A DNA stretch of 64,000 bases from Proteus faecis (GTDB lineage Bacteria > Pseudomonadota > Gammaproteobacteria > Enterobacterales > Enterobacteriaceae). Shown here piece after piece: positions 40,218-60,741 of this stretch (positions are counted from its first letter, which is position 1; each line of letters starts with the position of its first letter). The position numbers were made by a program, and so were the translations under genes. Below the pieces are notes generated by a model. The model was not told where the DNA came from, ran no database searches, and saw only the letters and a list, made by a program, of their open reading frames with translations. The stretch is taken from positions 124,001-188,000 of the forward strand of contig NZ_PENZ01000027.1 in the NCBI RefSeq assembly GCF_003144395.1, written 5' to 3'.

Positions 40218-40302
40218 GCCGGAGTGGCGAAATTGGTAGACGCAGTTGATTCAAAATCAACCGCCTTCGGGTGTGCCGGTTCGAGTCCGGCCTTCGGCAC
40301 CA
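40218..40302 (+). tRNA. leuX: tRNA-Leu (anticodon CAA)
   Basis: A class II tRNA of 85 bases. The acceptor stem GCCGGAG pairs with CTTCGGC (one G-U), the anticodon stem GTTGA/TCAAC holds the loop TTCAAAA with anticodon CAA, there is a long variable arm, the T-loop GTTCGAGTC, and an encoded CCA end. It corresponds to leuX of E. coli, a well-known island insertion site. The integrase gene starts 188 bases downstream. Confidence 0.97.
40285..40302 (+). other. probable island attachment site (attL)
   Basis: P4-type integrases recombine at tRNA 3' ends. The 3' end of leuX (ending CCTTCGGCACCA) directly precedes the integrase gene, so it is the expected attL. I saw no second copy of this sequence in the window, so the right end of the island should lie beyond 64,000. 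The exact length of the core is not known. Confidence 0.55.
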
Positions 40303-42008: not shown

Positions 42009-42234
42009 TTTTAACCCGCGCAAAGAAATCATGATAGAAAGCATAACATGTTATCGGGACTGTAAGGCAACTCATTATCCTGCTCTAAAACGTCATTAAT
42101 CATTTTTAAAGCAGATTGTCTATTTTCAACTGATTGGCTTTTTATATCAATATCATCTTCTAAAGGGAAATAGATCCTTTTATCAAAATATCGCCATTAA
42201 TTAAATCACAATACATCAATAATAGGACATGAAT

Positions 42235-43741: not shown

Positions 43742-44178
43742 TATTGCCCCCTCCATTATTTCAGCAACTATGGAGTAAACATGTGAAAACTCACAACTAA
43801 ACAGGTTATTGCATACAGCAAAGCCGGCCCAAAAAAATATTCAGATGGTGAAGGTCTATACTTTTGCGTCCGCAAACAAGGCTCGCCTTACTGGATGATC
43901 CGCTACACCACAGCCAAAGGAAGACGAGAAGCAACCTTGGGGCAATTTCCTTTAATGTCGTTGGTAGACGCCAGAATTGCCGCCGCATACTTTCGAAAGG
44001 AAGTACGTGACGGCATAGATCCTCTTCTAGAAAAACAGAAAATCGAGTTACCTGACATTGAGACCGTGGATCAACTGTTCCATGACTGGTATCGAACCGA
44101 TCTGAGTAGACGACTAAAGCATCCCAAGATTCCGTATCGGGTTTACACTAAAGACATAAGCCCTGTCATTGGCATTAA

Positions 44179-45052
44179 GAGCCTATCCCAAAAGGAATTA
44201 TCGTATAATATAATGAATTACGATAATTTCTGAGGGCGAAGCGTGACGGGCAACAAGTGGCAGATCAGTGATGGACTCTGGGAGAAAATGGCTCCACTGA
44301 TTCCGGAACATAAAACTCACCATCCTCAGGGTACTCACCGCAAGCAGGTTGATAATCGCGCTGCAATGAACGCCATCTTCTTCGTACTCAGGACGGGTTG
44401 CCAGTGGAATGCGCTGAATGCCACCGGTATATGCTCGTCAAGCTCTGCTCACCGCCGATTTCAGGAGTGGCGGGATGCTGGCGTATTTGAACGCTTCTGG
44501 CAAAACGGGTTGCTTGCTTGCGAACAGTTGGACGCTATTGACTGGTCGTGGCTGTCGATGGATGGTTGTATGACCAAATCACCGCTGGCAGGCTCAAAAA
44601 AACAGGCAGGAACCCTACAGACCGGGGGAAACAGGGCGTAAAGCGCAGTCTGATGACTGACGCGAACGGGCTTCCGCTTGCACTGGTTGTAGCTGGAGCA
44701 AATACGCACGACATAAAGCTGGTTGCGGATACGCTCGATGCCCTCCAGACAGGCAGACCATGCAAGAGGCTCCGGTTGTGCATGGACAAAGGGTATGAAG
44801 CGGAATGGTTGGAATCGTATCTGAGAAGTCGTCGCTATGAACCTCATATCCAGTCACGGAAGGATGAGTCAGAAGCCATTAAAAACACGGATTTTAAGGC
44901 TCACCGCAGGGTTGTAGAGAGAACACACAGTTGGATGAATCGCTACCGTCGTGTCCTGACTCGTTGGGAGAAGAAAGTCGAGAATTATGAGGCGATGCTG
45001 CATTTTGTCTGTGGTATCATTGTCTGGAATAAAACCCTATTGGGATAGGTTC
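44179..45052 (+). mobile_element. IS5-family (IS427-type) insertion sequence
   Basis: An 874-bp element with imperfect terminal inverted repeats, GAGCCTATCCCAAAAGG at the left and, as reverse complement, GAACCTATCCCAATAGG at the right. It is flanked by a 3-bp TAA duplication (44176-44178 and 45053-45055). Size, ends, TNA-type target and two overlapping transposase frames fit the IS427 group. It interrupts the second integrase. Confidence 0.93.
44243..45048 (+). CDS. IS5/IS427 transposase (two frames, -1 frameshift)
   Basis: The transposase is split in two frames: 44243-44641 from GTG (MTGNKWQISDGLWEKMAPLIPEH...), and 44548-45048 in the -1 frame (TGRNPTDRGKQGVKRSLMTDANGLPLALVVAGANTHD...). They overlap at a run of seven A residues followed by C (44596-44603), a standard -1 slippery site, so the full DDE enzyme is probably made by programmed frameshifting. 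Catalytic residues are visible as Asp in MDG/VDGW, Asp in LCMDKGYE and Glu in RRVVERTHSWMNRYRR. The element looks intact. Confidence 0.9.
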
Positions 45053-45910
45053 TAAGTGTATTGCTGAGGTGACCGCACGAGACGTGCGCGAAGTATTAGA
45101 GCGCATTCGAGAAAGTAACCGCCCTACTATTGCCAACGATACCTTGATGTACATGAAGCAGCTGTTTCGACATGCGATAAAGCTCGACTTAACGCTGAAC
45201 AACCCAGCCGCAGCATTTACCGTGGACGATGCCGGTGGCGTGGAGTCCAAGTAAAGACAGGATGCTCAGCAAAGAGGAAATTCACTACGCCTTTAGCGTG
45301 TTTCATACCCATATCAATAGCTTTGGCCGCGACAACTACCTCGCTTGCTGTCTGTTTTTGGTGTTGGGCGTGCGCAAAAGCGAATTGTGCGAAGCCATGT
45401 GACGTGAAATGGATTTAACCACAGGCGTGTGGGATCTGCCCAAAGAACGCAGCAAAACCGGCGTGCCCATTAGCATCCCCTTACCGCGCCAAGCCATTGC
45501 CTGGTTTAACGAGCTGCAAGTCCGCGCTTGTGGCTCGCCTTATGTTTTCCCAGCCAGACGAGCAAGCCATCGTCCACATATGGGGCCAGATACGCTGAAC
45601 CGTGCCATTTCTAAACTCTTTGGTCGCGAGCCTGGGCGCAAAAAACAGCCACCGAATAAAATGGGCAAGCTTGAACACTTCACCGTACACGATTTGCGCC
45701 GCACCTTTCGCAGCCTTGCCGCCTCTTTGGGCATTGCAGGCAACGTAGCCGAACGCTGCCTTAACCATAAGTTAAAAGGCGTTGAGTGCATCTACGACCG
45801 CCACGATTACTTTGAGGAGCGCCGTATTGCCCATCAAATCGTGGCTGATGTGATCGAACCACTGGTGAACTTTGAGCACTCTTCACAGCACAACACAGGA
45901 GGGCATTAAC

Positions 45911-47059: not shown

Positions 47060-47836
47060 GTGATAAGTGACGTGTTATGGGCAAGTGGCAACGATTGGGA
47101 TAGAGAATGGATACAGCAGGTGGTCGCTTTACTGGTTGGGGATGGTGCGTTTACTCTCTACCCAGCATTAAGCCAGTGCGATAATGCGGCCGAACGCTTA
47201 ACCCGCTGGTTGACCTATCAGTTACCACGCGTTAAACAAGCGCAGCCAGGCTGCCCGATTCACCAATGGCTAAATAGCATTGGCGCACAAGTGATCGTAG
47301 AAAAATAGCAAAGCCCCGAGCAATGGCCAAACCTATATTGGCTACCTTTACCTGAGGTTGATGGCAACGCGCAAGGCGGGTTAGCTTTGTTACCAGCGCA
47401 TTTATTACCGGCAGATTTTTTATCGGTATATGTGGATGGCACGATTCAAACCAGAACATTGCAAGCAAACACACTGGCTAACACCTGTATTTTTTGGTGC
47501 ATCACACCTTTATCTAAAACAGGAAAGCGCGCTACCTTGCACCCCAAACAGCAAAACCGAGCTTTTTGCCTGCCCAGCTCGCCGGAGCAAATGGGTAAAT
47601 CGTGCACAGGTTTATTACTGAGCGGTTTAAGAAAAGACAATGGAAAACGAAACGGCAACGTGATCAGCCACCAGATCAACCTAGCGCTGCTGCACCATCT
47701 TTGTAGACCGGAGAATGATGTTTGGATGAAAGCGAGTTTTGGTACCCTCAATGATGAGGGTACCAACAGCAAAATACTCGGCGAATGCTATTGTCTAAGC
47801 ACAGCGCCAAGCCTTAGCGGCACGAATAGTTGTTAA
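47060..47836 (+). pseudogene. unknown island gene interrupted by in-frame TAG
   Basis: One frame of 259 codons runs from GTG 47060 to 47836 with a single in-frame TAG at 47306. Both parts look coding: SDVLWASGNDWDREWIQQVV and HQWLNSIGAQVIVE before it; QWPNLYWLPLPEVDGNAQGG and LLPAHLLPADFLSVYVDGTI after it. No ribosome-binding site precedes the GTG and a stop lies shortly upstream, so it may also lack its N-terminus. Family not recognised. It converges on the res gene, ending 3 bases away. Confidence 0.55.
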
Positions 47837-47838
47837 CC

Positions 47839-50577
47839 TTACTCAGCTTTAGCAAACTGCTGGGTGAAGTAAACCAACGAATTAGCTTCTTTCACAGCAT
47901 CATGCGGAATGAGTAAGTATTTCCAGGGCTTGCCACCGTGCTGTGCAAGGTATTCGCTGGCATGACTACACCACTTCACACCACTGCGGGCTTTTTCGGT
48001 GACTTCCTCATTCCAACTGCCGTCTTGGTTTTGATGTTGAGTACTTTTAGTTTCAATCATCAATACATAGTCGGCGGTTTCAGCAACGAAATCCGGCACG
48101 TATTCAGGATGCTCGCTACCGCGTTTGTAGTACATCTTGAATTGGCCTTTGGCAGGCTTAAACCACTTCTCGCAGTCGCGTTCTAAAATCACCGCAAAAC
48201 GGCGCTCAGTGTCTGAATCAAACTTTTGCAATGGGTATAGACAACGGCTAAAGCCGCCAAAGAGCATTTGTTTGATGCGACTGACATCGCGTATTGTATC
48301 ACGGTAGCTTTGCACCGGCTGGTCTTGCGCTATGGTGTAAGCGCAGTCACGTAAGGTACTAAAGCCACTGCGTACATCGACGACGTACTCGGTTGCTTCT
48401 TCAAAGAAGTGGTTGTTCAGTTGCGCATGAATTAACTTCGCAATCGCATCACTCTGGTTTTGCAGAATGTTCTCAACCACATCATCGTCGTTTTCAGCGG
48501 CCAGTGTATTGACAGCTTGAGTGGCTAGGTCAAACAAAAGTTCAGCTTGCTCGTCGTAAGGAATATCGTCGTAATCGAACAGCTTCTTCAAAATATAGTT
48601 TTGTTTCACCGGCTCGTAGTTGCCCGAATCGCCTTCGCCACGAATGGTTTGGTGATTGTCTTGCAGGCTTTGTTGAATCAGAGTTCGGTCGATAGGTTTT
48701 AAACCTTTAATGGCAGCAATGTCCAAATCGAACGGGTAATAGCCGGTACGTACTTCACCTGATGGTGAAACAATAATACGCGGAATATCTATGGTGTTAT
48801 CCACCGTGAGCTGGGTGACTTGCTCAACAATCGCCGCAATATCCACCGATTCTTCAGTAAATAGCTCCCGTTGCTCTTGGGTTAACTGAGCTTTTACTTG
48901 TTCGGTGATCTGTGCTTTTACCTCAGTCGTTAACAATGCTTTGCTGGTCGGTGCATCGGTAGGGCGTGTTTGATATTGCTTGATCACGTTCAATGCAGCG
49001 CGGGCAACGGTTTGTTGGTTAGGCGTGGTATAAGTGGCTTTAGGTTCTTGTACCTCACGGTTACCGTCTGCACCGGTTGCGGTTACACCTGAACCAGTCA
49101 GTTGCTGCTCTAGGTTCGATTTAACCTGCACACTTTGTTTGGTTACATCGTCTTCTGGGCGATCTAATACGCGTGTTTTCAGGCGCAGTGGGTTATTCGG
49201 GTCGTTAGCCTCATCAACAATTTCTTGGAATTTGTCGTGCGCAACAATGCTCAGCGTATCGACGGCTTCAACACCTGTACGTTTGCCATAAGGTAAACGC
49301 AAACCACGGCCAATTGACTGTTCAATTAGGGTTCTGGCGTTGGCTGCACGTAGTGGCACAATGGTGTACAGGTTAGTAACGTCCCAACCTTCTTTCAGCA
49401 TGTTAACGTGAATGACGATCTCGGTTGGCTCATCGACATGCTCAACATTGAGCAGTGCTTGAATAGTTTCTTCTTCTTTTTTACTGCTATCCACTTGAAT
49501 GACTTTGCCACGGTAGCGGCCGTCAAACACTGTTTCAAGTTTGGTTAAAAGCTCTGCTGCATGCGTGGTATCACGGGCAATCACCAACATAAAAGGCTTA
49601 ACTAACTTGGCATCGTTTTCATGTGCATAAGTGATTAAATCCACCTTGGTTTGCTCATGTAAACGAATACCGTCCATTAACTTAATGGTTTCTAGTTCGT
49701 CTTTATCATATTGGCTGGCATCAAAGTTACGCTGAGTAACAACGGCCGGCTCTTTAACAAAACCATCATCCATGGCACAGGCCAATGGGTAATCAATCAC
49801 CACATTTTTAAAGTGCACAGGGCCACGACTTGATTCGGTAAATGGTGTGGCCGTTAGCTCTAATGCGAATAGTGGATTAAGCTCATTGAGCGCACGCATA
49901 CCGGCATCGGCACGATAGCGATGCGATTCGTCCATCAGCAGCACTAAGTCAGGTAAGTTCGATAGATACTCAAAGTAGCTTTCGCCTAGGGTTTCCGCTA
50001 AACGCTTAATACGCGGGGCTTTGCCTCCACGTACTTCGGTGTTAATTTTCGCGATGTTAAACACATTGATCCGAACCGAACCAAATAGATCTCCCATGAC
50101 TTGTGCGCCGCGGCTCTCATAGTTATCACCGGTGATCACTTCTGGCGGTGCTAGCACAAAATCGGTAATGCCTTTAAACACGTACTTCGGTGAGGCGGGC
50201 GAGAAATCGCTGATCAGCTTTTCATAAATAGTCAGGTTAGGTGCCAACACAAAATAATTGCGAATGCCGTGCACCTGATACAAATAGGTAATAAAAGCCC
50301 CCATCAAACGGGTTTTACCGACCCCTGTTGCCAAGGCAAAACACAGTGAAGGAAAGTCACGTTCAAAATCACTGAGCTTAGGAAACTGCGCTTTTAAGGT
50401 TTCTAATAATTCCGGCACATCGCGTTTTGGGTTAAGTAGTTTGTGCTCAGAAGCACTAATTGCCACCGCCAGCGCACGCAGCGAGTCTTGCTGTGGCTGG
50501 CGTAAACTTAAACGGCCAATAACATTGTTGATGGCGCGTAATTGCTCGGGTTTTAAGTTTGATAAATCCATGGTCAT
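47839..50577 (-). CDS. res: type III restriction enzyme, Res subunit
   Basis: Res is the helicase-nuclease subunit that, with Mod, translocates on DNA and cuts unmodified sites. The 912-residue protein has Walker A ATGVGKTR at residues 83-90, the DEAD-type motif II in LLMDESHRYRAD, motif III LTATPF, motif VI region SIGRGLRLPYG, and a C-terminal PD-(D/E)xK nuclease with PDFVAETADYVLMIETKS near residues 835-855. It begins 21 bases after mod, as expected for a mod-res pair. All motifs are intact. Last gene of the minus-strand defence cassette; no clear terminator lies in the 3-base gap to the convergent gene. Confidence 0.9.
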   Translation of the reverse strand: MTMDLSNLKPEQLRAINNVIGRLSLRQPQQDSLRALAVAISASEHKLLNPKRDVPELLETLKAQFPKLSDFERDFPSLCFALATGVGKTRLMGAFITYLYQVHGIRNYFVLAPNLTIYEKLISDFSPASPKYVFKGITDFVLAPPEVITGDNYESRGAQVMGDLFGSVRINVFNIAKINTEVRGGKAPRIKRLAETLGESYFEYLSNLPDLVLLMDESHRYRADAGMRALNELNPLFALELTATPFTESSRGPVHFKNVVIDYPLACAMDDGFVKEPAVVTQRNFDASQYDKDELETIKLMDGIRLHEQTKVDLITYAHENDAKLVKPFMLVIARDTTHAAELLTKLETVFDGRYRGKVIQVDSSKKEEETIQALLNVEHVDEPTEIVIHVNMLKEGWDVTNLYTIVPLRAANARTLIEQSIGRGLRLPYGKRTGVEAVDTLSIVAHDKFQEIVDEANDPNNPLRLKTRVLDRPEDDVTKQSVQVKSNLEQQLTGSGVTATGADGNREVQEPKATYTTPNQQTVARAALNVIKQYQTRPTDAPTSKALLTTEVKAQITEQVKAQLTQEQRELFTEESVDIAAIVEQVTQLTVDNTIDIPRIIVSPSGEVRTGYYPFDLDIAAIKGLKPIDRTLIQQSLQDNHQTIRGEGDSGNYEPVKQNYILKKLFDYDDIPYDEQAELLFDLATQAVNTLAAENDDDVVENILQNQSDAIAKLIHAQLNNHFFEEATEYVVDVRSGFSTLRDCAYTIAQDQPVQSYRDTIRDVSRIKQMLFGGFSRCLYPLQKFDSDTERRFAVILERDCEKWFKPAKGQFKMYYKRGSEHPEYVPDFVAETADYVLMIETKSTQHQNQDGSWNEEVTEKARSGVKWCSHASEYLAQHGGKPWKYLLIPHDAVKEANSLVYFTQQFAKAE

Positions 50578-50598
50578 TATAATTATCCTTATTAACCG

Positions 50599-52341
50599 TT
50601 AATCTTGCGCTGCATCGTCATCGGCAGACGCATCGTCAGTTAGGTTTGCCACATTTAACGAATAATCGTCCTGACCAAATTGGCACTTATTCAAAATGGC
50701 TTTTGGCAGTTTTTTCAAGGTTAAATTCGCAAAACGACCTGGCTCGCAGCGAAATGCACCACACATAACCAGTAAAGTTCGGTCACTGCCAACTTCTTCT
50801 GACAGCGCTTCTAATTTATCTACCGATAAGCTTTGTGTGGTGACATAAATATGATCCGTCTCGGTTGAATAACCGTGATCCCACCAATTCACTTCCGATG
50901 GCGCATAGGTAAAACCTTCCAGCTTACAAACCGCCTCAGCAAGCATTTCTGGGTTGTACTCTTTATTGATCACTTCCAAGCCAAACTTATCTTTCACAAT
51001 TAAGGTCGGGGCAAGTTTGTAATAGCGGAAGCCACCGCCACCTTGCCAGTTTACAAACTTAGAAATACCACCTTGATCTTCACCATCAATCACTTTTTGC
51101 AAGCGCGGGATGATGTGAGTGTGGCAATGCTCGCCTAGCTCCACCATGATCCAACGACGGCCCATTTTATGGGCGACTGCGCCAGTTGTTCCTGACCCTC
51201 CAAAAGAATCCAATACCAAGTCACCTGGTCTTGTTGTCATCGCAATAATGCGTTTCACTAACTTTTCTGGTTTTTTGCCATTTTTAAAATCTACTGAACC
51301 TTCATTATCAAGTCCTGTTGTTTTTATATCATGCCAAAAATCGCCGGGATGAACTTCTAAATACTTATCTGCAAAAAGCATTTTACATCGTGGTAGGCGC
51401 GTTTCATGATTAAACTCACCTCTAACAAGATATGCTTTGGATTGTTTTGTCGTGACAATGAATGCTGAAGGTATATCACCGTATGATAATTTCTTTTCAA
51501 CGGCCAGATCTCTAGCCCCGCCAGTAATAGTTGCAAATTGAACTACGCGCCAAGCATTATCAAATAGCCACTCTTCTGTAAGCTTAGAGTTTCCCTCTTT
51601 TTTACACGCTTCTGTAGCACTACAGAATTCTAGCTTTTTAGCTAAATCTTCTGCTCTCTTGATCTCTTCTTCCGTGCGTAATTCGTTGTCCAAAACATCT
51701 TTTATATATTCAAGTTCTAGTTGGCTTAGACCCAGACAAACTGTTTTATATTCATAGTCCCAACTTCCCTTAGGGATTTTTTCAAGTGTAAGACCACGAA
51801 TACCACTTTTTCCAGCCAAAATTATGTACTCTTTTAGCTTTGCAATACTTCCATTCTTATTAATGGAAGCCATTTTTACACCTGTAGGCTCACTCATCTT
51901 AACGCAGATGGTTTTTAAATTTTGCTCACCAAATATCTCTGCCATTATCAAATACAATCTTGCAAATTGTCGGTCATCTATTTGAACTGCAATAAACCCA
52001 TTTTCATGTAATAAAACCTCTAATATCTCTAACCTAGACTTCATCAAACTCAACCATATAGAGTTTTCCAGTCCGTCATCATAATGCTCGAATGCGTTCC
52101 CTGTGTTATATGGCGGGTCTATATAAATACACTTTACCTGACCAGCATATTCTTGCTCTAACGCCTTCAACGCCAATAGGTTATCGCCAAAAATTAGCTT
52201 ATTATCAAAAATATCATTTTCGGTGACTTTTTGGCTGGCATGGTAAGACTTGCTCGGGTCTTCTAATAAAATGCGCGGCTCTAGCTTTTTGCGCTCGTTT
52301 TTACCTATCCAGGTCAGTTCTAATTTAGTTTTGCTCATCAT
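50599..52341 (-). CDS. mod: type III DNA adenine methyltransferase, Mod subunit
   Basis: Mod recognises the target and methylates adenine (N6) on one strand. The 580-residue protein is a beta-class amino-methyltransferase: catalytic motif IV DPPYNTG at residues 75-81 comes before the AdoMet motif I in LVLDSFGGSGTTGAVAHKMG near residue 390, with the target-recognition domain between them. That middle segment (51.3-51.95 kb) is plainly more AT-rich than both flanks, suggesting exchange of specificity by recombination. The start is one of two adjacent ATGs. It lies 54 bases after the AIPR gene and 21 before res. Confidence 0.93.
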   Translation of the reverse strand: MMSKTKLELTWIGKNERKKLEPRILLEDPSKSYHASQKVTENDIFDNKLIFGDNLLALKALEQEYAGQVKCIYIDPPYNTGNAFEHYDDGLENSIWLSLMKSRLEILEVLLHENGFIAVQIDDRQFARLYLIMAEIFGEQNLKTICVKMSEPTGVKMASINKNGSIAKLKEYIILAGKSGIRGLTLEKIPKGSWDYEYKTVCLGLSQLELEYIKDVLDNELRTEEEIKRAEDLAKKLEFCSATEACKKEGNSKLTEEWLFDNAWRVVQFATITGGARDLAVEKKLSYGDIPSAFIVTTKQSKAYLVRGEFNHETRLPRCKMLFADKYLEVHPGDFWHDIKTTGLDNEGSVDFKNGKKPEKLVKRIIAMTTRPGDLVLDSFGGSGTTGAVAHKMGRRWIMVELGEHCHTHIIPRLQKVIDGEDQGGISKFVNWQGGGGFRYYKLAPTLIVKDKFGLEVINKEYNPEMLAEAVCKLEGFTYAPSEVNWWDHGYSTETDHIYVTTQSLSVDKLEALSEEVGSDRTLLVMCGAFRCEPGRFANLTLKKLPKAILNKCQFGQDDYSLNVANLTDDASADDDAAQD

Positions 52342-52395
52342 TTCTGTGCTCTTATTTTGTGTTCGTTACTTGGCGTTATTATTCCACAGCAATCG

Positions 52396-54234
52396 CTACG
52401 CAGGTTGTGCTTGGCGATTACTCGCTTGGGTGTTTTGCCCTTGTCGGCGTTGCGCTTGCTCGGCTAAGTAACTGAATAAATTCTGGTTGTGTGGGTCGTT
52501 CGCTTGAAGGCGTTCTTGTTTTGCTACAACTGCCGGGCTTTCTGTCAAGTTTAAATGGCTAATCCACACCGTTTGCATTAAACGTGCGGTATCGCCCAAG
52601 CGTTTGAAGTATGCGTGCGGCGCACTGCCTAATACTAATGCCGTAAAACTATCAAAAAATTGCTGACGAAGTTCATCAAAAGCGTGGCTGATTAATCTTT
52701 TAAATGCCGCTTGCTCGGTAATCTCAGGAGCCGTAATAGCGCCTTCAAACTGCGCCATTAATAGCGTGGTTATGCAGTAAGTAAAATGTCGATATACCAG
52801 TTTTTCTGGGCTTGGACTACTGCGCTCTGCGTTTGTACATAAGACTTGAATAGCCAGATAGCAGTTCACCGCGTTAATGGCGACGGCCCCCTGTAAATCT
52901 GTACTAAAAACGGCTTGGTACTCGGCACTTTCTTGGTTAGTGAATTTGCTTGGCTCTACTTTTAGCTGATAAGGCACGCGTACATCACCTTGCATACAGG
53001 CCAATGCTTTGGCCAAGGTGTCGATAGTAATGCTGCGAATACCCGCTGCTGCGCTTTGTTGTGGGCGGTAGAGATATTCAACACCAAACATTTTCATCTC
53101 TTGGCGCAAGCGTTCTTGGGTATCATCCAGCGCGGCAAAGTTGGCTAAATCGACCGGGTTTTGCAGGTTACGCGCTTTGGTTACTTGTTTGTGAAATGCA
53201 TCGTTACCCGTGTTGATAATGGTTACCATCACTTGAGCTTGGCTGATGTCTGCATTTGGGTTTTCACGCATAAACTGTGCAGCACTAGCAATGGTTTGTG
53301 CACCGTTAACGACGGACAGGCCATCGACTGCAACATGCTTGCTACCTGTGTGGCCTCTAATATTCCCTTTTGGTTTTACTGCATTGCCAACCAGAGTAAT
53401 GCCATTGTTAAGATAAATAAAATTTTCCGGCTCATGTAAAAGGGTGTCTTTAATCGCCCTATTTACCCCACGTCTGCCAGCACCAATAAAATAGCGAATA
53501 TTTTTCTCGTAAAGTTTACGGTCATGAGTAGTGTGCAAGGCAATTAAATCGGTTAGCTTGGCGATACCAAATACGACTTTTCGTGGTTGTTCTTGCACTC
53601 GGAACTTATATACAGCGACACGCTCGTTTACCGTATCAACCGCATGTTCACTGCGAAGAGCCTGCTCAACATCGGTGGCGGTGTATTCTTGATATTCAGG
53701 TGCGATTTGCTCTTCACCTTCATCAATCAGCTCTTGGATCGCTGGTTGTAGGTAGTTTTGTGCTTGTATGGTAATGCCATTACCTGTGTATGCGACAAGC
53801 AGTTGAATGCTTTCGCACTCGTCTAATGCGGCTTCAATATTTGCTTGAAGGTTTTGAACATTTTGATTAAAGCGGTGAAATTGCTTGTTTAAAAGTAACT
53901 TTACACCCTCAATAAAAGCCTGTGCTTCGCCCAATTGGAATTGCGCATCTTCCTTCATTTTTGACTGTACTAAGTACAGAGTCTGATCAGCTTCGTGATA
54001 ATAAATTGCATCAATACCATGGTCTTCATAGTCGTCCACCACAGCTTTTGCTGCGGTCACTACGTCTAAATCGAATTTTTGCTGTAGTACGAATGCGCTA
54101 AAAGCCCTGGAAATTTGCTTTTTAGGTTTATCTTCTCGCCCACCTTGCCCAAGCAATGGCGGTAAATGCGGCACAAAACGCTGCTGTAGCAGTTCTTTTA
54201 ATGGGGTAAGAAATTGTGGTTCTAATGCTGCCAA
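52396..54234 (-). CDS. AIPR-family (abortive phage infection) protein
   Basis: AIPR proteins were described with abortive phage-infection genes and are often encoded beside restriction systems. The product of about 612 residues has an N-terminal nuclease-like segment (DDYEDHGIDAIYYHEADQTLYLVQSKMKE, with Asp and a QxK pair as in PD-(D/E)xK folds) and the AIPR core (YLNNGITLVGNAV, DGLSVVNGAQTIASA, KARNLQNPVDLANF). TTG 54234 is chosen because AAGGA lies eight bases upstream; a TTG at 54261 would add nine residues and overlap the previous stop. It sits between abi and mod in one run of genes. Precise activity unproven. Confidence 0.82.
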   Translation of the reverse strand: MAALEPQFLTPLKELLQQRFVPHLPPLLGQGGREDKPKKQISRAFSAFVLQQKFDLDVVTAAKAVVDDYEDHGIDAIYYHEADQTLYLVQSKMKEDAQFQLGEAQAFIEGVKLLLNKQFHRFNQNVQNLQANIEAALDECESIQLLVAYTGNGITIQAQNYLQPAIQELIDEGEEQIAPEYQEYTATDVEQALRSEHAVDTVNERVAVYKFRVQEQPRKVVFGIAKLTDLIALHTTHDRKLYEKNIRYFIGAGRRGVNRAIKDTLLHEPENFIYLNNGITLVGNAVKPKGNIRGHTGSKHVAVDGLSVVNGAQTIASAAQFMRENPNADISQAQVMVTIINTGNDAFHKQVTKARNLQNPVDLANFAALDDTQERLRQEMKMFGVEYLYRPQQSAAAGIRSITIDTLAKALACMQGDVRVPYQLKVEPSKFTNQESAEYQAVFSTDLQGAVAINAVNCYLAIQVLCTNAERSSPSPEKLVYRHFTYCITTLLMAQFEGAITAPEITEQAAFKRLISHAFDELRQQFFDSFTALVLGSAPHAYFKRLGDTARLMQTVWISHLNLTESPAVVAKQERLQANDPHNQNLFSYLAEQAQRRQGQNTQASNRQAQPA

Positions 54235-54251
54235 GTGAGTTGTCCTTATTT

Positions 54252-55181
54252 TTATTGCCAAATTGGCCGCGCTTGCCAGTCGGCTGGAAAGCCCATGCGG
54301 TCAATGTCTATTTGGTGATGATTTATCAATTGGATGAGTCGTTGCTTCCAGTGATGTTCACCACTGATCACATCCATGAGGTAGCCCAACATCACCAAGG
54401 TGTTATAAATTTTTCGTAAACGCCGGTCGCTATCGGGCAGGTTTTGCAAGCTTTGAATCAGTGCCGGTTCACCATGGCGTGGCAGTACCGTGGTTTTAAT
54501 AAAATCACGGTTCCATAGCCTAGAATGATGGGCACTTAAATTGCGCACTAGCGACAAATGCTCACAGAATGAGGTAAGAGTTTTTTCATCTAGGCCGTAG
54601 CTTTTGCTTATTACCTGGCGGTCGGCACGCAGCTTGATATTGCTGTACCAACAGGAAAGTTGCCCCATGGTTAACAGCTCAACACAGGCCCAAATAGGGG
54701 GTAGTGGCTCTTGATATTTTTGCGTAAGGTGCTTGATGAACTCTTCACGACTGCGCTTTACCTCACCCGTGAGTTTGCCAAGGCTACTGGCGTATTCTAA
54801 TAAATCACCAAAGAGCTCTGGTTTTAAATGAGGGTGCGCGGTTTGGTATTTTTGGCTCAACTGATACGCAATTTGTGTGCGTAATGACACCTCAAAACGC
54901 TCGATGGCATCTAGCACTAACAAACGTAGTTCACGGTCGAAAACATATAGGCTTAGGACTTGGTCAAACTGAGTACCTGTGATAAACGTATGACTGGCAT
55001 GATCTTGCTCATAGGGCAAACAATAAGCCGCAAAACGATAGTAGTTCAGCTGTGCTAAGTAAAACTCAGCTTTCGGGACATCACTGATCACTAGGCCACG
55101 TTGTTGCAACAAGCGTACTTGATCGCTAAAGCTTGTAGGGGGCTTGGTAAAAGCGACTTTAGGGACTGGTTTGCGGCTCAT
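54252..55181 (-). CDS. AbiD/AbiF-like (Abi_2) HEPN protein
   Basis: Abi_2 proteins cause abortive infection in lactococci and carry a HEPN-type RNase fold. The 309-residue product starts [20 protein letters not shown], has [19 protein letters not shown] typical of the family, [21 protein letters not shown], and the HEPN motif [13 protein letters not shown] (Arg-x4-His), so RNA cleavage on infection is the likely role. ATG 55181 has GGGAGG five bases upstream; an ATG 12 bases earlier overlaps that site. It has its own promoter and starts the abi-AIPR-mod-res run. Confidence 0.85.
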
Positions 55182-55338
55182 TTGACCTCCCATGCAACAG
55201 AAGATCGAATTTTGCGGGTCCCAGAAACGAGTAACCCCTCACAGGGCGCTGATCTGACGGGTAGCGGGAGGGGTGTTGTTGCAGTGATCATAGCCCCAAA
55301 CTGAAAAAAGTCAATGCTGGCGTTGAAATTGATTGTCA
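55182..55338 (-). promoter_or_regulatory. internal promoter and leader hairpin of the defence cassette
   Basis: Read leftward, TTGACT (55309-55314) and TATGAT (55287-55292) are separated by 16 bp: a strong sigma-70 promoter for abi-AIPR-mod-res. The leader then holds a 7-bp stem ACCCCTC/GAGGGGT (arms at 55268-55274 and 55234-55240) around a 27-base loop before the abi ribosome-binding site, which could tune expression. Confidence 0.75.
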
Positions 55339-58233
55339 TCATTGAACCGTCCACCCAATGGTAAATAGGGTCTCTTGGCTGGTTTTTTTATTCAGTTTGC
55401 CTTCTAAGCTTTCAATAAGCTGTTCGCGCTTTTCGTCCACTTCATCTTGTTTATCAAAAAGTTCGCGGCGGCTTTTATTGCGCTGACTTTCTAACTGGCG
55501 CTGCTGTTTTTGCAGGGCAAGTTTCTCTTCTAGCGTTGGGGCTATTTTGGCTTCGCGGCGTACTTGCTTGATTTGCTTATCAAGCTCTTTTATGGATTGT
55601 TCAAGCCCTTCTTTTAAATCGTCTGCCCAAGAATCTAACTTGTTTACTTCTTGCTCGAAGAAGCTGAGATTACGATCGTTAACTTGCTTTTCGATGCCTA
55701 GTCTCGACTGCTGTAACGCTTGCTGCAGCGCATTTTGATAGCCAGGATATAAGGCGGCAAGTTCTTGCTCACTGACTTCACTTTGCACACAAGCACTGAG
55801 CTGCATCAACTTTTGCACGACTTCACTTGGCAGCAGGTTGCCATGTTCGTCTTGCGCTGCGAACAGTAAATGGTCTTCGCTACGCTCTAGTGATTCAACA
55901 CTGAATTTTTGTAGGCTTAGTACACCTGACGAACCCACTAAGGGTTCTAGCATACTGATTTTTGTTTGGTGGTTGCTGTAATCAAAAATTACGCTGGCAA
56001 TAGGTAATTCACGTTGAAGCGCGTTGCTGATCACCCATTCACCCAGCGGGTGGGTGATACGATAAACATGGGCATTGGCTAGTTTGCCGGTTTCAATACT
56101 GCCGCTTTGCTGTCCTCGGCGTACAAGTTGGTAGCTACCTGTAGGAGCCTGATTGATGCTCTGATTAAGCGTAAAACTATGGTTGCTTGGGTCAATGTCT
56201 GCGATAGCAGCGAGCTCATGCGTACTGAGTTGCCAAAACCAACGGCCTACTTTATCGAGGCGTTGCTGCGCGGCATCAAGCTGAATTTTGAGTAAGTCGT
56301 GAATATCTTCATCGAAATTTTCCAGCAGCAGTTGCTGGGTCTCGCGCATTTTTTGGTTAATGTCGGCTTCTAGCTCTTTTTGCAATTGATCAAAAGCTGC
56401 TTCTATTTCCGCCGGTTGCCGACAAGTCTCGTATATATTTTGGATGCGTTTTTCAAAATCAATACCAGATTCGATACTGCCTAGCACATCGTCCGATGCA
56501 CCAAACACGCCATCGAACAGATGGAATTTTTCTGTTAGTAGCTCTAAAACACGCTGATCGGCTTTGTTGGCTTCGTTGAGGAAGTTGATCACCACAACAT
56601 CAAATTGCTGCCCATAGCGGTGACAGCGGCCAATACGTTGTTCTACCCGTTGTGGGTTCCATGGTAAGTCATAGTTAATCAGTAACGAACAGAACTGTAA
56701 GTTAACCCCTTCTGCAGCCGCTTCGGTTGCGATCATAACTTCGGCATGATGGCGGAAGTAATCAATTAGGGCGGTACGGCGGTCAATTTGCGGTGAACCA
56801 CTAACCTTATCACTACCTTGGTTTTCAGCTAACCACTGCTGATAAACTTTGGTTGCTTCTGGATGGTTATTGCTGCCACTAAAAGTGACTAATTTATCAG
56901 CAAAGCCATTCGCCTCGAGGAAACGAGCTAAGTATTCTTGCGTGCGCTTCGATTCGGTAAAAATAATGACTTTACGCGGCGCACCCATCTCCTCCATTTT
57001 GGCAAACCCTTGATTAAGCGCCGTTAGCAAGGCTTGGGTTTTACTGTCGGTGGTAATGGATTTAGCCTGCTCGATATAATGCTCAAGCTCGGCTATTTCA
57101 GCATTGAGTAACTCAAAGTCAATATCACTCTCAGGGGTATTGCTTTGTGTTTCTCCTACATACTCGCTGTACTCTTCTCCTAAATCATCACTCTCAACAA
57201 GCTCACTGATAATATCGAGGTCCGATTTAGCCTGTACTTTCAAGTCAACCAATCGGCGCTTTATAGTTTCGAGTGTGTTGAGCACTGCGTGCGAACTAGA
57301 TGCTAATAGCTTTCTCAGTATAAGGCCGGTTAAATGACGTTGGCTCTTGGGTAGTGCATAGCTCTCGTCCTTTTCCAATAAGGCACTAATACTTTCGTAA
57401 AGTGCCATCTCAGCATTAGAGGGTGTAAACGGTACGGTGAGTGTTTGACGTTGGGTATAGCGGACGTATTCGAGTACATCTTTGCGCAAGGTACGCTGAA
57501 TAAACCCGGTAAGTCGTTTCTTTAAATGCCCTAGCGCACTTTCGTTATTGACAAAGTGTTGTTTGAAGCTTCGCTCATCGCCGAAGATTTGATCGTCGAT
57601 AATGGTTGAAAGTCCATACAATTCCATGAGCGAGTTTTGTAAGGGTGTTGCAGTAAGTAATAGCTTTTTACTGCCATCTAATGCGCGGCGTAGCGTTTGA
57701 CCCATTTTATTGCTGCTACGATGTGCATTACGTAGCTTGTGCGCTTCGTCGATGACGACAATATCCCATGGCTCTAGCATTAGCTGCGTTTCCATTCTCG
57801 CAGCATAGTGATAGGACATAATAGAAACGCAGTGATTAGCTAGCGGGTTAGTTTGACCATTGTTAACACTAATGCGCCACGTTTTTGCATCAAGCACTTG
57901 CGTTGGTAAATTAAACTTATCGCCCAATTCCTGCGCCCACTGGCGTCGCAATGACGCCGGGCAGATGATCAATATGCGGCGTTTACGCTCTGCCCAATAC
58001 TGTGACAGTACTAAGCCTGCTTCAATAGTTTTCCCTAAGCCCACTTCATCAGCGAGTACAACACCTTTGCTTAACGGGTTGTTGAGCGCAAAAAGTGCCG
58101 CATGAATTTGGTGCGGATTGAGATCAACACTGGCATCAAAAAGAGATTGAGACAATTTATCAACGCCATTTTCAGCGTGGCGAATGGTTAATTCCTGCGC
58201 AAAGTATTTTGCTTGATAATCAGTTAGTACCAT
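55339..58233 (-). CDS. SNF2/RapA-type DEAD/DEAH helicase
   Basis: A large SF2 ATPase of the SNF2 family. The 964-residue protein has motif I in LADEVGLGKTIEAGL, motif II DEAH in VVIDEAHKLRNAHRSSNK, motif III LLLTATPLQNSLMELYGL, and the C-terminal helicase lobe with ATEAAAEGVNLQFCSLLINYDLPWNPQRVEQRIGRCHRYGQ, followed by a long coiled-coil C-terminus (about residues 840-950, Glu/Lys/Gln rich). ATG 58233 is chosen since the preceding gene supplies AAGGA and the family starts near YQAKYFAQEL. Such helicases occur in several defence systems (for example DISARM drmD); here it overlaps the HTH gene and precedes abi. Role in defence is inferred from context. Confidence 0.85.
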   Translation of the reverse strand: MVLTDYQAKYFAQELTIRHAENGVDKLSQSLFDASVDLNPHQIHAALFALNNPLSKGVVLADEVGLGKTIEAGLVLSQYWAERKRRILIICPASLRRQWAQELGDKFNLPTQVLDAKTWRISVNNGQTNPLANHCVSIMSYHYAARMETQLMLEPWDIVVIDEAHKLRNAHRSSNKMGQTLRRALDGSKKLLLTATPLQNSLMELYGLSTIIDDQIFGDERSFKQHFVNNESALGHLKKRLTGFIQRTLRKDVLEYVRYTQRQTLTVPFTPSNAEMALYESISALLEKDESYALPKSQRHLTGLILRKLLASSSHAVLNTLETIKRRLVDLKVQAKSDLDIISELVESDDLGEEYSEYVGETQSNTPESDIDFELLNAEIAELEHYIEQAKSITTDSKTQALLTALNQGFAKMEEMGAPRKVIIFTESKRTQEYLARFLEANGFADKLVTFSGSNNHPEATKVYQQWLAENQGSDKVSGSPQIDRRTALIDYFRHHAEVMIATEAAAEGVNLQFCSLLINYDLPWNPQRVEQRIGRCHRYGQQFDVVVINFLNEANKADQRVLELLTEKFHLFDGVFGASDDVLGSIESGIDFEKRIQNIYETCRQPAEIEAAFDQLQKELEADINQKMRETQQLLLENFDEDIHDLLKIQLDAAQQRLDKVGRWFWQLSTHELAAIADIDPSNHSFTLNQSINQAPTGSYQLVRRGQQSGSIETGKLANAHVYRITHPLGEWVISNALQRELPIASVIFDYSNHQTKISMLEPLVGSSGVLSLQKFSVESLERSEDHLLFAAQDEHGNLLPSEVVQKLMQLSACVQSEVSEQELAALYPGYQNALQQALQQSRLGIEKQVNDRNLSFFEQEVNKLDSWADDLKEGLEQSIKELDKQIKQVRREAKIAPTLEEKLALQKQQRQLESQRNKSRRELFDKQDEVDEKREQLIESLEGKLNKKTSQETLFTIGWTVQ

Positions 58234-58420
58234 CCAACACCCCTTTTCCTTGAGCTGCTTGCGTACTGATCCATTCTTCAAGATCGGATTGTTTAAAGCG
58301 CCAAGCATTGCCAACTTTAAAAGCAGGAATTTTATGTGCCGCTGCTAGACGGTAAACAGTTCTCTCATTTACCTTCAAATACTCAGCTACTTCTTTAATT
58401 GTCAGAACAGTATCAGTCAT
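58220..58420 (-). CDS. excisionase-like helix-turn-helix protein
   Basis: A 66-residue DNA-binding protein of the HTH_17/excisionase type (LTIKEVAEYLKVNERTVYRLAAAHKIPAFKVGNAWRFKQSDLEEWI), a MerR-like winged helix. It overlaps the helicase gene by 14 bases and heads the defence cassette, so it may regulate it. ATG 58420 has GAGTG just upstream; a GTG six bases earlier is also possible. Upstream, TGTACTTATTTGTACT contains a direct repeat that could be an operator. The gap 58421-58667 otherwise has no gene. Confidence 0.85.
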   Translation of the reverse strand: MTDTVLTIKEVAEYLKVNERTVYRLAAAHKIPAFKVGNAWRFKQSDLEEWISTQAAQGKGVLDGTN

Positions 58421-58667: not shown

Positions 58668-59815
58668 TTAGTCATCCAAGATGCTGCCTTTAACACAATA
58701 CATGCGTGGGCGGGTGTTGTCGGGTAGGCTGACTTTGCGCTGTGGTCGGTTGCCATCGGGGACAAGGTAGCCTGCGGCTATCAGTGCTTTGGCGGCGCGA
58801 TCTGGGCTTAGGCCTTCGGTGGCTTCGCGCCAGCCGGTTGGGTAAAACAGGTAAAGGGTTTGTGGGCCTGTAGAGTCAAGCCAACCGGCGCGTTGGCGTA
58901 CTTGGCTGCTGTAACCGGTTTGTTTGGGCGTAAAGCGGCTTTCGCCATGTTGCTCAATAAAACTGCGTACTTGGCGAATGGCTTGTTGGTCTTCATTGGC
59001 GGCCACACCACCGCGGGCGAGTATCCATTGGTTAAGCAGGCTTAAACAAGCGGCTTCGACACTTTGAGCTGGCCAATCGAGTACTTTGGCTTGAATGGCT
59101 AACAGGCCTGCGCTGGCCAGTAAGGCAAACTTTTCGGCGACCCGGCGCACTTGGCCGTCAGCCTCGGTTGGTAAGCTGGTTAAAAAGCGTTGGCGTACGT
59201 TTTGGAAAACGGGTCGCACCTGTGCGCCGTGCTGCGTTAAATACCGTAACCAGTCCAAGGCCAAGCAGCCGTAATGTTGGCGACTTTGCTGTTTTAGATG
59301 ATCGGATAAATCGGCGGCATTCATACCATGACTCTGGTTAAACACGCCCATTTGCGCTCCGGCATCGGCACTGAGATCAATCACTCGCACTTGCTGGCCG
59401 GCTTTTACGCGCTTGCCGATACTGGCAAGATGGCTTTCGAGCGTGACTTCGCCAGTGGATAAAAACACCAAACGCCAACGGGCGGGTAAGCGCATTTCAC
59501 CGTATTTGCCTGCACGGGTTTTACCTTGTCCATTGGCAAGCATGTAAGCGACATCGCCCGCCTCTTTTGGGTCAACTTCGCCCATTTCATCGAGCGCCAG
59601 CAAGGCATCGTTATGCGCTAATGCTGTGCCTTCTAAACCGTTGGCCGTGGCCCGCCAACTGTGGCGTAGCTGATTAGGTTCGCCCCACACCGATAATGCC
59701 GGATACAGCGCTGCGGTTTTACCAGTACTGCTGGCACCATAGAGGTGTAAACCAAAACCATCCACCCCACACTCCAAGCTGAGCGAAGGTTCGACAATGC
59801 TGAGTTTCCCCAGCA
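58668..59815 (-). pseudogene. DUF927 helicase/primase-like protein, N-terminally truncated
   Basis: The frame holds the C-terminal part of a DUF927 protein, a family of ATPases in phage-like islands thought to act in replication. The Walker A region LYGASSTGKTAAL is followed by RATANGLEGTALAHNDALLALDEMGEVDPKEAGDVAYMLANGQGKTR, all typical. The protein-like frame can be followed upstream only to LLGKLSIVEPSLSLECGVDGFG at about 59,815, where it abuts a hipA fragment, so the N-terminal half is gone. Sequence is GC-rich compared with the core. Translation from an internal start is possible but function is unlikely. Confidence 0.8.
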
Positions 59816-60389
59816 GGCATATAAATTTGTGCCTTAGGTCTGGCCCCGCCCGAACTACCTCCGGCGACTAATGCGGCCAACACCTGTTGAGTACGCCCAT
59901 CTAACTCATCGTGATTATCATCCATATAATCTGGCATTGAAGCATCGAACAGCGTTTGTGCTTCTAAGCCCAAGGTGGCTAAATCAATATCCGCATGCGT
60001 GGAGGCTGAAAACTCAGACACCGGAGAAAAAGACAATGCTCCCATGCCTTTATCACCGATAAAGGCCAGTCTATCCATCGCCGTTAATTGATTAGGCAGG
60101 ATGCCCTGTTGCCGGAAAATACGATCTTGTAACAGCATGCCCCAGCCATCGGGCAAACAATCTCCAAATACGCCATGTACACCCTGGTGTGGCTGCTTAG
60201 GTGCAACTTGAACTTGCGCGTTCGCATGCAAGGTAAAAGGAGATAAATTGCCAAACTGCTGCAAATAGCTGTCTGCATACTGAAAAAAAAAACGCCTTGC
60301 CGATTCTGCGCCAAGATCCCTACAGCAACCTGCTCACCTGAGCTTAACGTACGAGTTACGGCGAGTTTTTGAATGGGTTTAAAACTCAT
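59800..60389 (-). pseudogene. hipA: HipA toxin kinase, truncated and frameshifted
   Basis: The N-terminal part of a HipA-type Ser/Thr kinase toxin. It starts at ATG 60389 (MSFKPIQKLAVTRTLSSGEQVAVGIL), loses frame at a run of ten T residues (read leftward, near 60,283-60,292), and continues as YLQQFGNLSPFTLHANAQ, GVFGDCLPDGWGMLLQDR and GGSSGGARPKAQIYMPAG. There the HipA sequence stops at the junction with DUF927, so the kinase catalytic core is missing. It overlaps hipB by 11 bases in the usual hipBA arrangement. Certainly non-toxic as a kinase. Confidence 0.85.
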
Positions 60390-60669
60390 CTTTTAGCACC
60401 TCATCAATACTCGCGGGTACAGCAGCGCGTTCTTTGCTATGTTGTGTGAGCTGATAAAGCCTCTCTAGCGAATCAAGTGTTTGCCAAAGCAACAGCAATT
60501 GGCGAAATGAAATTTGCCCAGTTAACTCAAACTTCTTAATGGTGGCCGCAGGCACACAGCTGCGCTCAGCAAGCGCCGCTCGTGACAGCTTTGCCTGCTT
60601 TCGTAACTCACGTAAATATGCCGCATAGGCTTGGCTTACATCGGTATCATCAAGTAAGGTAAATTTCAT
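60379..60669 (-). CDS. hipB: HipB-like antitoxin / XRE repressor
   Basis: A 96-residue XRE-family protein with an HTH (LRELRKQAKLSRAALAERSCVPAATIKKFELTGQISFRQLLLL), the antitoxin that normally neutralises HipA and represses hipBA. ATG 60669 is chosen: an ATG at 60702 lies inside the promoter/operator, as the -10 TATAAT is at 60701-60706. The gene seems intact although its toxin is dead, so it may survive only as a repressor. Confidence 0.85.
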   Translation of the reverse strand: MKFTLLDDTDVSQAYAAYLRELRKQAKLSRAALAERSCVPAATIKKFELTGQISFRQLLLLWQTLDSLERLYQLTQHSKERAAVPASIDEVLKDEF

Positions 60670-60684
60670 CCGCAAAGGCCAAAT

Positions 60685-60741
60685 GGATACATTAATATCC
60701 ATTATAGCGAAATAAAATAGAAAGTGGATATCATTGTATCC
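60685..60741 (-). promoter_or_regulatory. hipBA promoter with two palindromic operators
   Basis: GGATA-N6-TATCC occurs twice, at 60685-60700 and 60726-60741, 41 bp apart (about four turns), with a perfect leftward -10 TATAAT (60701-60706) between them. The half-sites are those of the known HipB operator, but in outward rather than inward order. Beyond this, 60742-61074 has no supported gene; a GTGGGCAnnnnGTGGGCA direct repeat lies near 60,890-60,910. Confidence 0.7.

What the first reader, a model, noticed from the sequence alone, without database searches (positions are those of the whole stretch)
47839..58420. Composite defence operon: HTH, SNF2 helicase, HEPN Abi, AIPR and type III Mod/Res
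Six co-oriented genes with overlaps or short gaps combine a full type III restriction-modification pair with a SNF2-type ATPase, an Abi_2 HEPN RNase-like protein and an AIPR nuclease-like protein. Each family is known in phage defence, but I do not know this exact set as a named system. The layout suggests restriction backed up by an abortive response, perhaps triggered when restriction fails, with the helicase as sensor or translocase. All catalytic motifs are intact. Family calls rest on visible motifs; joint function is inference.
Basis: partly seen in the sequence, partly recalled or inferred. Interest (0 to 1): 0.82.

Follow-up and report, generated by a model that had tools for sequence, protein, structure and literature searches.

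The report
Restriction operon carrying swappable toxin cargo
This bacterial DNA-cutting defence operon pairs a conserved helicase, methylase and nuclease core with interchangeable backup weapons, one of which is a ribonuclease toxin preceded by a previously unannotated RNA that very probably acts as its antidote.

Summary
They are not one fixed six-gene system. Relatives show a conserved core, HTH + DrmD/RapA-like SNF2 ATPase + type III-like Mod + Res: 29 of 30 related SNF2 loci with full flanks have Mod and Res, and Mod stands beside 16 of 17 readable SNF2 loci in an evenly drawn class sample. Genes between are cargo: absent in 9 of 29 cassettes, else AIPR or other families (Schlafen, AAA+DUF4276, SMC-like, YhcG, RhuM, GmrSD, Fic among representatives scanned). 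A Salmonella plasmid copy with 97% identical SNF2 and Res has other cargo and no AIPR; an E. coli copy differs chiefly in Mod's recognition segment.

New here: the gap before Abi_2 holds a promoter-like site and a structured RNA (55219-55282, minus) of the abiF kind, missed by Rfam but found by a model built from RNAs not on a contig with this SNF2 (E 1.9e-14); 7 of 10 pairs covary. So Abi_2 is most likely an AbiF-type RNase toxin with an RNA antitoxin. AIPR's N-terminus resembles PD-(D/E)XK nucleases.

Observation confirmed; interpretation partly supported; new variant of a known kind. No experiment was run.

The parts
58220..58420 (-). small HTH_17 (excisionase-like) DNA-binding protein, probable operon regulator
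   Evidence: Pfam HTH_17 E 5.8e-21; NCBIfam MAD1 83.5 bits vs cut-off 80; overlaps the SNF2 start
55339..58233 (-). SNF2-family ATPase, 964 aa, DrmD/RapA-like
   Evidence: PADLOC DrmD 694 bits; NCBIfam DrmD_b 696 bits, below its cut-off 950; RapA best in PDB; motifs intact
55287..55314 (-). sigma-70-like promoter TTGACT-16-TATGAT for the RNA (prediction)
   Evidence: best-scoring site, 10 of 12, though the region has no excess of sites: 14 found, 17.3 expected; a -10 match of 5 or 6 of 6 at the same place in 18 of 25 related RNAs, mean 5.08 vs 3.67 shuffled
55219..55282 (-). structured non-coding RNA of the abiF kind, candidate RNA antitoxin
   Evidence: model R1 56.5 bits, E 1.9e-14; 10-pair structure, 7 pairs with double changes
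54252..55181 (-). Abi_2/AbiF HEPN ribonuclease-type toxin, 309 aa
   Evidence: Pfam Abi_2 E 3e-52; PDB 8vz6 Abi family protein E 4.6e-52, the Arg and His of RNLSAH aligned to its R210/H215
52396..54261 (-). AIPR protein: N-terminal PD-(D/E)XK-like domain plus AIPR domain
   Evidence: Pfam AIPR E 3.2e-38; D73, Q88, K90 (numbered from the start at 54228) invariant in 8 of 8; best fold matches are restriction-type nucleases
50599..52341 (-). type III-like Mod, adenine methyltransferase
   Evidence: PADLOC MTase_III 680 bits; PDB EcoP15I Mod E 1.3e-20
51290..52023 (-). recognition segment of Mod, replaced in sister copies
   Evidence: 34-74% identity to E. coli L012 in the 200-base bins from 51200 to 52000, 86-100% in the other bins from 47800 to 58200
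47839..50577 (-). type III-like Res: helicase plus C-terminal PD-ExK motif
   Evidence: PADLOC REase_III 634 bits; EcoP15I Res E 3e-6; motifs

Best explanation
A mobile type III-like restriction-modification operon built as a platform. The core is HTH regulator, DrmD-like SNF2 ATPase, Mod and Res. Mod marks host sites (specificity set by a swappable recognition segment) and Mod-Res cuts unmarked invading DNA; the SNF2 ATPase most likely acts on DNA bound by Mod-Res, as an extra translocase that clears, loads or licenses it. Between SNF2 and Mod sits a cargo slot. Here it holds two back-up effectors: (1) an AbiF-type HEPN RNase kept inactive by a small structured RNA made from its own promoter, which would be freed when a phage shuts off or degrades host transcripts and would then stop growth; (2) an AIPR nuclease found so far with this class of Mod-Res, probably attacking DNA. 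Shown by comparison: gene order, core linkage, cargo exchange, recognition-segment exchange, RNA conservation and covariation, toxin homology. Inferred: phage defence, the role of SNF2, the triggers, and binding of this RNA to this toxin.
For: Core linkage: 29 of 30 full-flank relatives; Mod in 16 of 17 readable class-sample loci and Res in 13 of these 17, several contigs ending first; Mod and Res near in 13 of 13 annotated loci that I chose to read. Cargo varies: 20 of 29 with, 9 without; many families. On the SNF2 tree the Res class changes 4 times (shuffled mean 21.7) but the three cargo states 24 times (shuffled 31.5). Near-identical copies with changed cargo (L013) or changed Mod recognition segment (L012). 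RNA: 99.6% of cells paired vs 85.0% shuffled and 35-56% slid; 7 of 10 pairs with double changes; independent model E 1.9e-14; same element, found by eye and anchored by script, upstream of 20 of 20 Abi_2 homologues read. Toxin: homologue of 8vz6, which PMC12373285 describes as AbiF bound to a ncRNA (passages).
Against: No expression, methylome or phage data. Res of this class occurs without this SNF2 in 8 of 21 other Res-bearing genomes, so Mod-Res does not need SNF2 to persist. Cargo states are still more clustered on the tree than chance (0 of 200 shuffles as low). The full 101-nt window stretch does not fold better than shuffles (z +1.12); the 44-nt core only modestly (z -1.60, 17 of 200 shuffles as good). 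The window RNA lacks the strong U-run seen after many standalone hairpins. L037 has Abi_2 in a cassette without this RNA. The linkage control is small and viral: 1 of 16 other SNF2 loci, one of the 16 (L130) being a contig-end piece of the clade itself.
Confidence: 0.6

Rival explanations
1. One integrated six-gene system: all six proteins act jointly, Abi_2 and AIPR released when restriction fails, SNF2 as sensor.
For: Same six-gene order in E. coli and the same five genes in Nitrincola; AIPR lies between SNF2 and Mod in every cassette where my profile found it; PrrC-PrrI precedent (passages of PMC3710099).
Against: Abi_2 beside this SNF2 in 2 of 33 places; core without cargo in 9 of 29; cargo replaced in a core with about 97% identical SNF2 and Res; Abi_2 has its own promoter-like site and RNA.
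Confidence: 0.12
2. An ordinary type III R-M pair in a defence island; SNF2, Abi_2 and AIPR are passengers with no functional tie.
For: Res of this class occurs in genomes without this SNF2 (8 of 21; 7 of these neighbourhoods show Mod-Res); Abi_2 is mostly not beside this SNF2.
Against: SNF2 of this clade is found with Mod in 29 of 30 and 16 of 17 cases on one strand, in loci from many phyla (titles).
Confidence: 0.1
3. A reduced DISARM: DrmD and a methylase left over after loss of DrmA, DrmB and DrmC.
For: SNF2 matches DrmD at about 695 bits; L093 has DrmD, Mod, Res and DrmA together, and L124, L091, L127 hold relatives of the DrmA- and DrmB-like genes by clustering (DrmB scanned in L091).
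Against: Below the DrmD cut-offs (696 vs 950; 304 vs 610); no DrmB, and DrmA only as a weaker helicase match of SNF2, among listed hits of the window genes (some lists cut at 25); the SNF2s of L091, L093, L124, L125, L127 form their own group. I did not scan every locus for DrmA/B.
Confidence: 0.08
4. The abiF RNA-toxin pair mainly stabilises the mobile island (addiction) rather than defending against phage.
For: It lies beside an integrase and tRNA-Leu and in E. coli L012 beside an integrase and tRNA-Sec; RNA antitoxins are generally labile (recalled).
Against: AbiD/AbiF proteins were first found in phage resistance (passage of PMC12373285); the two roles are not exclusive.
Confidence: 0.1

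Closest known systems
Type III restriction-modification (EcoP15I, EcoP1I)
   Same: adjacent mod and res; Mod and Res match EcoP15I subunits; PD-ExK at the Res C-terminus
   Different: an SNF2 ATPase and HTH gene head the operon, and cargo genes sit between them and Mod; Res similarity to EcoP15I is weak
DISARM class 1 (DrmD, DrmMI, DrmA, DrmB; gene set recalled)
   Same: DrmD-like SNF2 next to an adenine methylase; L093 combines both with Mod and Res
   Different: no DrmA, DrmB or DrmC gene seen in this operon; type III-like Mod and Res instead; DrmD score below the family cut-off
ARMADA (PMC12458937)
   Same: a BrxHII/RapA-like helicase paired with a methylase (section 5 read)
   Different: no YprA-family helicase here; the methylase is type III-like Mod, not PglX-like
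AbiF / abiF RNA toxin-antitoxin (Rfam RF03085; C. difficile AbiF-RCd22; PDB 8vz6)
   Same: HEPN toxin with conserved R and H, preceded by a structured RNA with a promoter
   Different: RNA too diverged for Rfam, one motif not two, weak U-run, and embedded in an R-M operon
PrrC-PrrI
   Same: HEPN RNase inside an R-M operon as second line of defence (passages of PMC3710099)
   Different: type I R-M there, and the toxin is held by R-M proteins, whereas here an RNA antitoxin is the likely keeper

Membership tests
Type III restriction-modification | adjacent Mod (N6-adenine methylase) and Res (SF2 helicase with nuclease) | tested here: met
Type III restriction-modification | Mod-Res complex cuts unmethylated DNA at a distance from its sites | not testable with these tools
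   needs protein and methylome work
DISARM | DrmD passes the curated family score | tested here: not met
   696 bits vs 950 and 304 vs 610
DISARM | DrmA and DrmB genes present | tested here: not met
   every operon gene has another Pfam identity and no MZB/DrmB-type hit (lists complete); in PADLOC no DrmB among listed hits and DrmA only as a weaker match of SNF2 (SNF2 and Mod lists cut at 25); the window beyond the scanned genes was not tested
MADS | mad1 HTH protein | tested here: met
   83.5 bits vs cut-off 80; RefSeq names the E. coli copy MAD1
MADS | the remaining mad genes in the operon | tested here: inconclusive
   only mad1 among listed PADLOC hits of 9 proteins, but the lists for Mod and SNF2 were cut at 25; the name MAD1 alone does not make it MADS
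AbiF with abiF RNA (type III-like toxin-antitoxin) | Abi_2 HEPN protein with the R-x4-H motif | tested here: met
AbiF with abiF RNA (type III-like toxin-antitoxin) | abiF RNA structure directly upstream | tested here: met
   R1 E 1.9e-14, covariation; Rfam's own RF03085 model does not reach it
AbiF with abiF RNA (type III-like toxin-antitoxin) | RNA neutralises the toxin | not testable with these tools
   shown elsewhere for C. difficile (PMC12373285, abstract text and passages)
AIPR family | AIPR domain (PF10592) | tested here: met
   132.6 bits vs 25; the MzaE equivalog is not met, 49 vs 1050
PD-(D/E)XK nuclease (AIPR N-terminus) | fold and D...QxK residues | tested here: inconclusive
   AF2 pLDDT 93.2; best Z 9.0 FokI and AF1548, 8.3 MspJI, but Foldseek had no E of 0.001 or less; D73, Q88, K90 invariant in 8 of 8

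The most novel reading that the evidence does not exclude
HTH-SNF2-Mod-Res is a distinct, phylum-spanning class of restriction system in which the DrmD-like SNF2 ATPase is the constant part: it has paired with two classes of Mod-Res and serves as the platform on which exchangeable effectors (RNase toxin with RNA antitoxin, AIPR nuclease, Schlafen, AAA-DUF4276, Fic and others) are mounted and perhaps gated by the restriction complex.
Probability: 0.3. Interest if true: 0.75.

Novelty: new variant of a known kind. Interest (0 to 1): 0.56.

Why it matters
It turns a six-gene puzzle into a testable design: a conserved restriction core with a slot for interchangeable suicide or nuclease modules, where nature has already swapped the cargo or the recognition segment in near-identical copies. 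It also adds a diverged abiF-type RNA that Rfam misses, which would explain how the Abi_2 gene can sit in an operon without harming its host. Coupling of restriction with suicide was proposed in 2012-2013 (PMC3506569, PMC3710099); these natural swap pairs make it directly testable in E. coli.

Tried and rejected
Fixed six-gene system: rejected on Abi_2 linkage (2 of 33 places) and cargo replacement. DISARM membership: DrmD cut-offs not met. MADS membership: only the HTH name is shown to match. AIPR as a HEPN protein, as a passage of PMC3506569 says: the predicted N-terminal fold instead resembles PD-(D/E)XK nucleases (RNA polymerase subunit RPB5 chains follow at Z 5-6); Foldseek alone gave no significant match for the whole protein or the domain. 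No PDB relative of AIPR by sequence. Rfam found nothing in the gap. A 101-nt fold of the gap looked random; the core hairpin appeared only by comparison. Island end: the 25-base 3' end of tRNA-Leu occurs once in the own genome, up to 2 mismatches, so no second attachment copy was found. L078 has a weak RNA-model hit (30.2 bits) without an Abi_2 label; hits of 29-31 bits also occur elsewhere in the own genome, so I treat it as background.

Rows dropped: the 29 of 30 count keeps 30 of 80 genome loci (score >900, length >850 aa, both flanks >=9 kb); over all 80, Mod was seen in 59 and Mod+Res in 48, many contigs being short; the exception among the 30 is L077. Both locus searches were capped (best 80 kept). 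Of 21 viral clade loci 18 have Mod (17 on the same strand) and 16 both; the three without, L110, L117 and L118, end right after SNF2. In the class sample 4 of 21 were set aside because the contig ends before a Mod could be seen (L214, L215, L217, L225). Tree: FastTree only; L092 removed and L021 relabelled AIPR by hand before the counts; loci without both Mod and Res are not in the cargo count. The other-SNF2 control (16 viral loci) leaves out loci whose SNF2 fell under 150 bits and includes L130, a piece of the clade at a contig end. Cargo families were named for 20 representatives plus AIPR and Abi_2 by profile; singletons were mostly not scanned. Of 32 other Abi_2 places 20 were read for the RNA.

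The statement that this SNF2-Mod-Res-cargo design was not found in print rests on searches of one open-access library; subscription papers are not covered (one sought by DOI was not held). Associations of AIPR with R-M and type III R-M, and of Abi2/AbiF with R-M operons, are already in print.
Full report
What is there. The window holds six minus-strand genes in the order HTH, SNF2, Abi_2, AIPR, Mod, Res. Pfam and PADLOC confirm the families and a motif script places the expected catalytic motifs. Small corrections: SNF2 starts at 58233 and overlaps the HTH gene; Abi_2 most likely starts at 55181. Nearby lie tRNA-Leu (40218-40302), a tyrosine integrase and an ArdA gene, so the operon is probably part of an integrated island.

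The same operon elsewhere. 29 of 5,426 E. coli genomes have a match and 24 hold at least 80% of it, all on chromosomes; the copy read (L012) lies beside tRNA-Sec with an integrase and an ArdA remnant. On plasmids, 982 records have an SNF2 match; 45 cover at least 80% of the protein in one place and 22 are 95-99% identical, of which 15 Salmonella rows and a partial Providencia row are listed. I chose 13 loci to read with annotation, L012-L024: all have Mod and Res nearby, some in pieces, but the genes between differ.

Core and cargo. A profile search of species genomes returned the best 80 SNF2 loci, with titles from many phyla, and viral contigs 79, only part of them of this clade. Gene maps show SNF2, then nothing or one to several genes, then Mod, then Res; a few have Mod-Res-SNF2. 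Of 30 loci with a full-length clade SNF2 and both flanks of 9 kb or more, 29 have Mod (same strand) and Res; of 16 other SNF2 loci, 1 has. In an evenly drawn sample of 369 genomes of the class, this SNF2 is in 22 including the own one and this Res in 22 including the own one. Reading the 21 other SNF2 places: 4 contigs stop too soon, 16 of the remaining 17 have Mod on the same strand (13 of 17 have Res in view), and the last is a degraded SNF2 with Res pieces. Conversely, of 21 other Res genomes, 10 have SNF2 beside Res, 3 have it on another contig (G136, G169, G360), and 8 lack it; in 7 of these 8 the neighbourhood could be read and shows Mod-Res. So SNF2 depends on Mod-Res more than the reverse.

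What the cargo is. Of 29 full cassettes, 9 carry no cargo and 20 do. Families among 20 representatives from all loci: AAA_21 + DUF4276 (PADLOC HEC-01), Schlafen AlbA_2, SMC-like AAA_23, YhcG nuclease, RhuM, GmrSD, Bro-N, HerA, Fic, and an SbcCD-like pair downstream of Res. AIPR occurs in 6 of the 30 and lies between SNF2 and Mod in each. Close AIPR relatives are rare: 3 of 369 class genomes, the window, one in a cassette (G391), one not (G127). Abi_2 is common and mostly elsewhere: 33 places in 30 genomes, of which 2 lie beside this SNF2.

Exchange seen directly. Against E. coli L012 the operon is 97-98% identical in two long pieces, separated by window 51290-52023, inside Mod between motifs IV and I, where the recognition segment lies. 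Against the Salmonella plasmid L013, SNF2 (97.2%) and the Mod end plus Res (97.7%) match, the start of Mod is 85%, but the cargo is a different abiF RNA and Abi_2 (66% identity, now in two ORFs) beside an IS256 element, and AIPR is absent. On the SNF2 tree the window's starred group of five joins it with two SNF2s whose partner is the long Mod-Res class, yet its own Res and AIPR are most like those of short-class, AIPR-bearing loci. L026, the fourth-best SNF2 match, is short-class, and my one-segment comparison of Mod was not informative. The simplest reading is that an AIPR-Mod-Res block came under another SNF2. Counts of change: Res class 4 (shuffled mean 21.7), AIPR 4 (9.5), three cargo states 24 (31.5; 0 of 200 shuffles as low). 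The tree is a FastTree tree, so details are soft.

The RNA before Abi_2. The gap between SNF2 and Abi_2 has the best-scoring promoter-like site of the region (55314-55287), although the region shows no excess of such sites. The same element, AACAA then stem-loop-stem, stands before Abi_2 in 20 of 20 homologues whose upstream DNA I fetched, out of 32 other places; it was recognised by eye and then anchored by script. An alignment of 24 gives a 10-pair structure by RNAalifold: 99.6% of cells paired (shuffled 85.0%, slid 35-56%), 7 of 10 pairs with changes on both sides. Rfam's abiF family RF03085 matches 15 of 19 of these stretches at E up to 5, and 4 reach its gathering score, but it does not match the window. 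A covariance model from 18 of them, none on the same contig as this SNF2, finds the window copy at 56.5 bits, E 1.9e-14; the next window hit has 16.8 bits, the next in the whole genome 31.2 bits. It also finds the copies upstream of Abi_2 in L012, L013, L025 and L030, not in L037. Most have a -10 box just upstream (18 of 25 with 5 or 6 matches).

The toxin and the nuclease. Abi_2 matches PDB 8vz6 (E 4.6e-52) with its Arg and His aligned; PMC12373285 (passages) describes that structure as AbiF bound to a ncRNA and reports RNA neutralisation of an AbiF toxin in C. difficile. AIPR's N-terminal 198 residues fold confidently (pLDDT 93.2), and the best structural matches are AF1548, FokI, MspJI, AspBHI, Avs4, nickase BspD6I and HamA, Z 6.7-9.0; D73, Q88 and K90 are invariant in 8 of 8. 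Z near 8-9 is only moderate and Foldseek itself was not significant, so the nuclease call rests on fold plus motif.

Relation to known systems. PMC3506569 and PMC3710099 (passages) already state that AIPR is linked to type III R-M, that Abi2/AbiF is embedded in R-M operons, and that toxins replace each other in R-M loci; PMC12458937 (abstract, passages, section 5) pairs a RapA-like helicase with a methylase in DISARM class I and ARMADA. The SNF2 here fails the DrmD cut-offs. L093 combines this SNF2 type, Mod and Res with DrmA, and L124, L091 and L127 hold clustered relatives of the DrmA- and DrmB-like genes. What I did not find in print (ten searches, see Tried and rejected) is the SNF2-Mod-Res core with its cargo slot as a defined system, or an abiF RNA inside it.

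Mechanism. Shown by comparison: a conserved core, exchangeable cargo, exchangeable specificity segment, and a conserved RNA before an RNase-type toxin. Inferred: restriction by Mod-Res, motor help by SNF2, growth arrest by Abi_2 when its RNA is lost, DNA attack by AIPR. Nothing here shows that failed restriction is the trigger.

Noticed in passing
window 42229-42819: ArdA antirestriction gene beside the integrase (40491-41759) and tRNA-Leu; an ArdA remnant sits beside the E. coli copy of the operon too (L012), so restriction and antirestriction seem to travel together.
   Followed up: partly
window 43895-45909: Pieces of a second integrase (arm-binding piece and catalytic piece) around a transposase fragment, suggesting stacked or disrupted islands.
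   Followed up: no
window 58668-60702: DUF927 fragment, HipA N-terminal fragment and an HTH gene just upstream of the operon, looking like broken pieces of other mobile modules.
   Followed up: no
L093, L124, L091, L127: DISARM-like loci: in L093 DrmD-like SNF2, Mod, Res and DrmA share an operon; the others hold clustered relatives of DrmA/DrmB-like genes, and L091 has a Res-like helicase and a C5 methylase. A possible link between DISARM and type III R-M.
   Followed up: partly
L067, L068, L074, L131: An SbcCD-like nuclease pair directly downstream of Res in four related cassettes (one scanned, the others by clustering).
   Followed up: no
L196: Two abiF RNA matches on one strand upstream of one Abi_2 gene, recalling the two-motif antitoxin of C. 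difficile.
   Followed up: no
L078:16693-16748: Weak abiF-model hit between Mod and Res with no Abi_2 label nearby; probably background but not explained.
   Followed up: partly
window 58220-58420: RefSeq names the HTH protein MAD1 in the E. coli copy although the operon is not shown to be MADS; the curated cut-off is barely passed by the window protein (83.5 vs 80 bits), so the name may mislead.
   Followed up: yes
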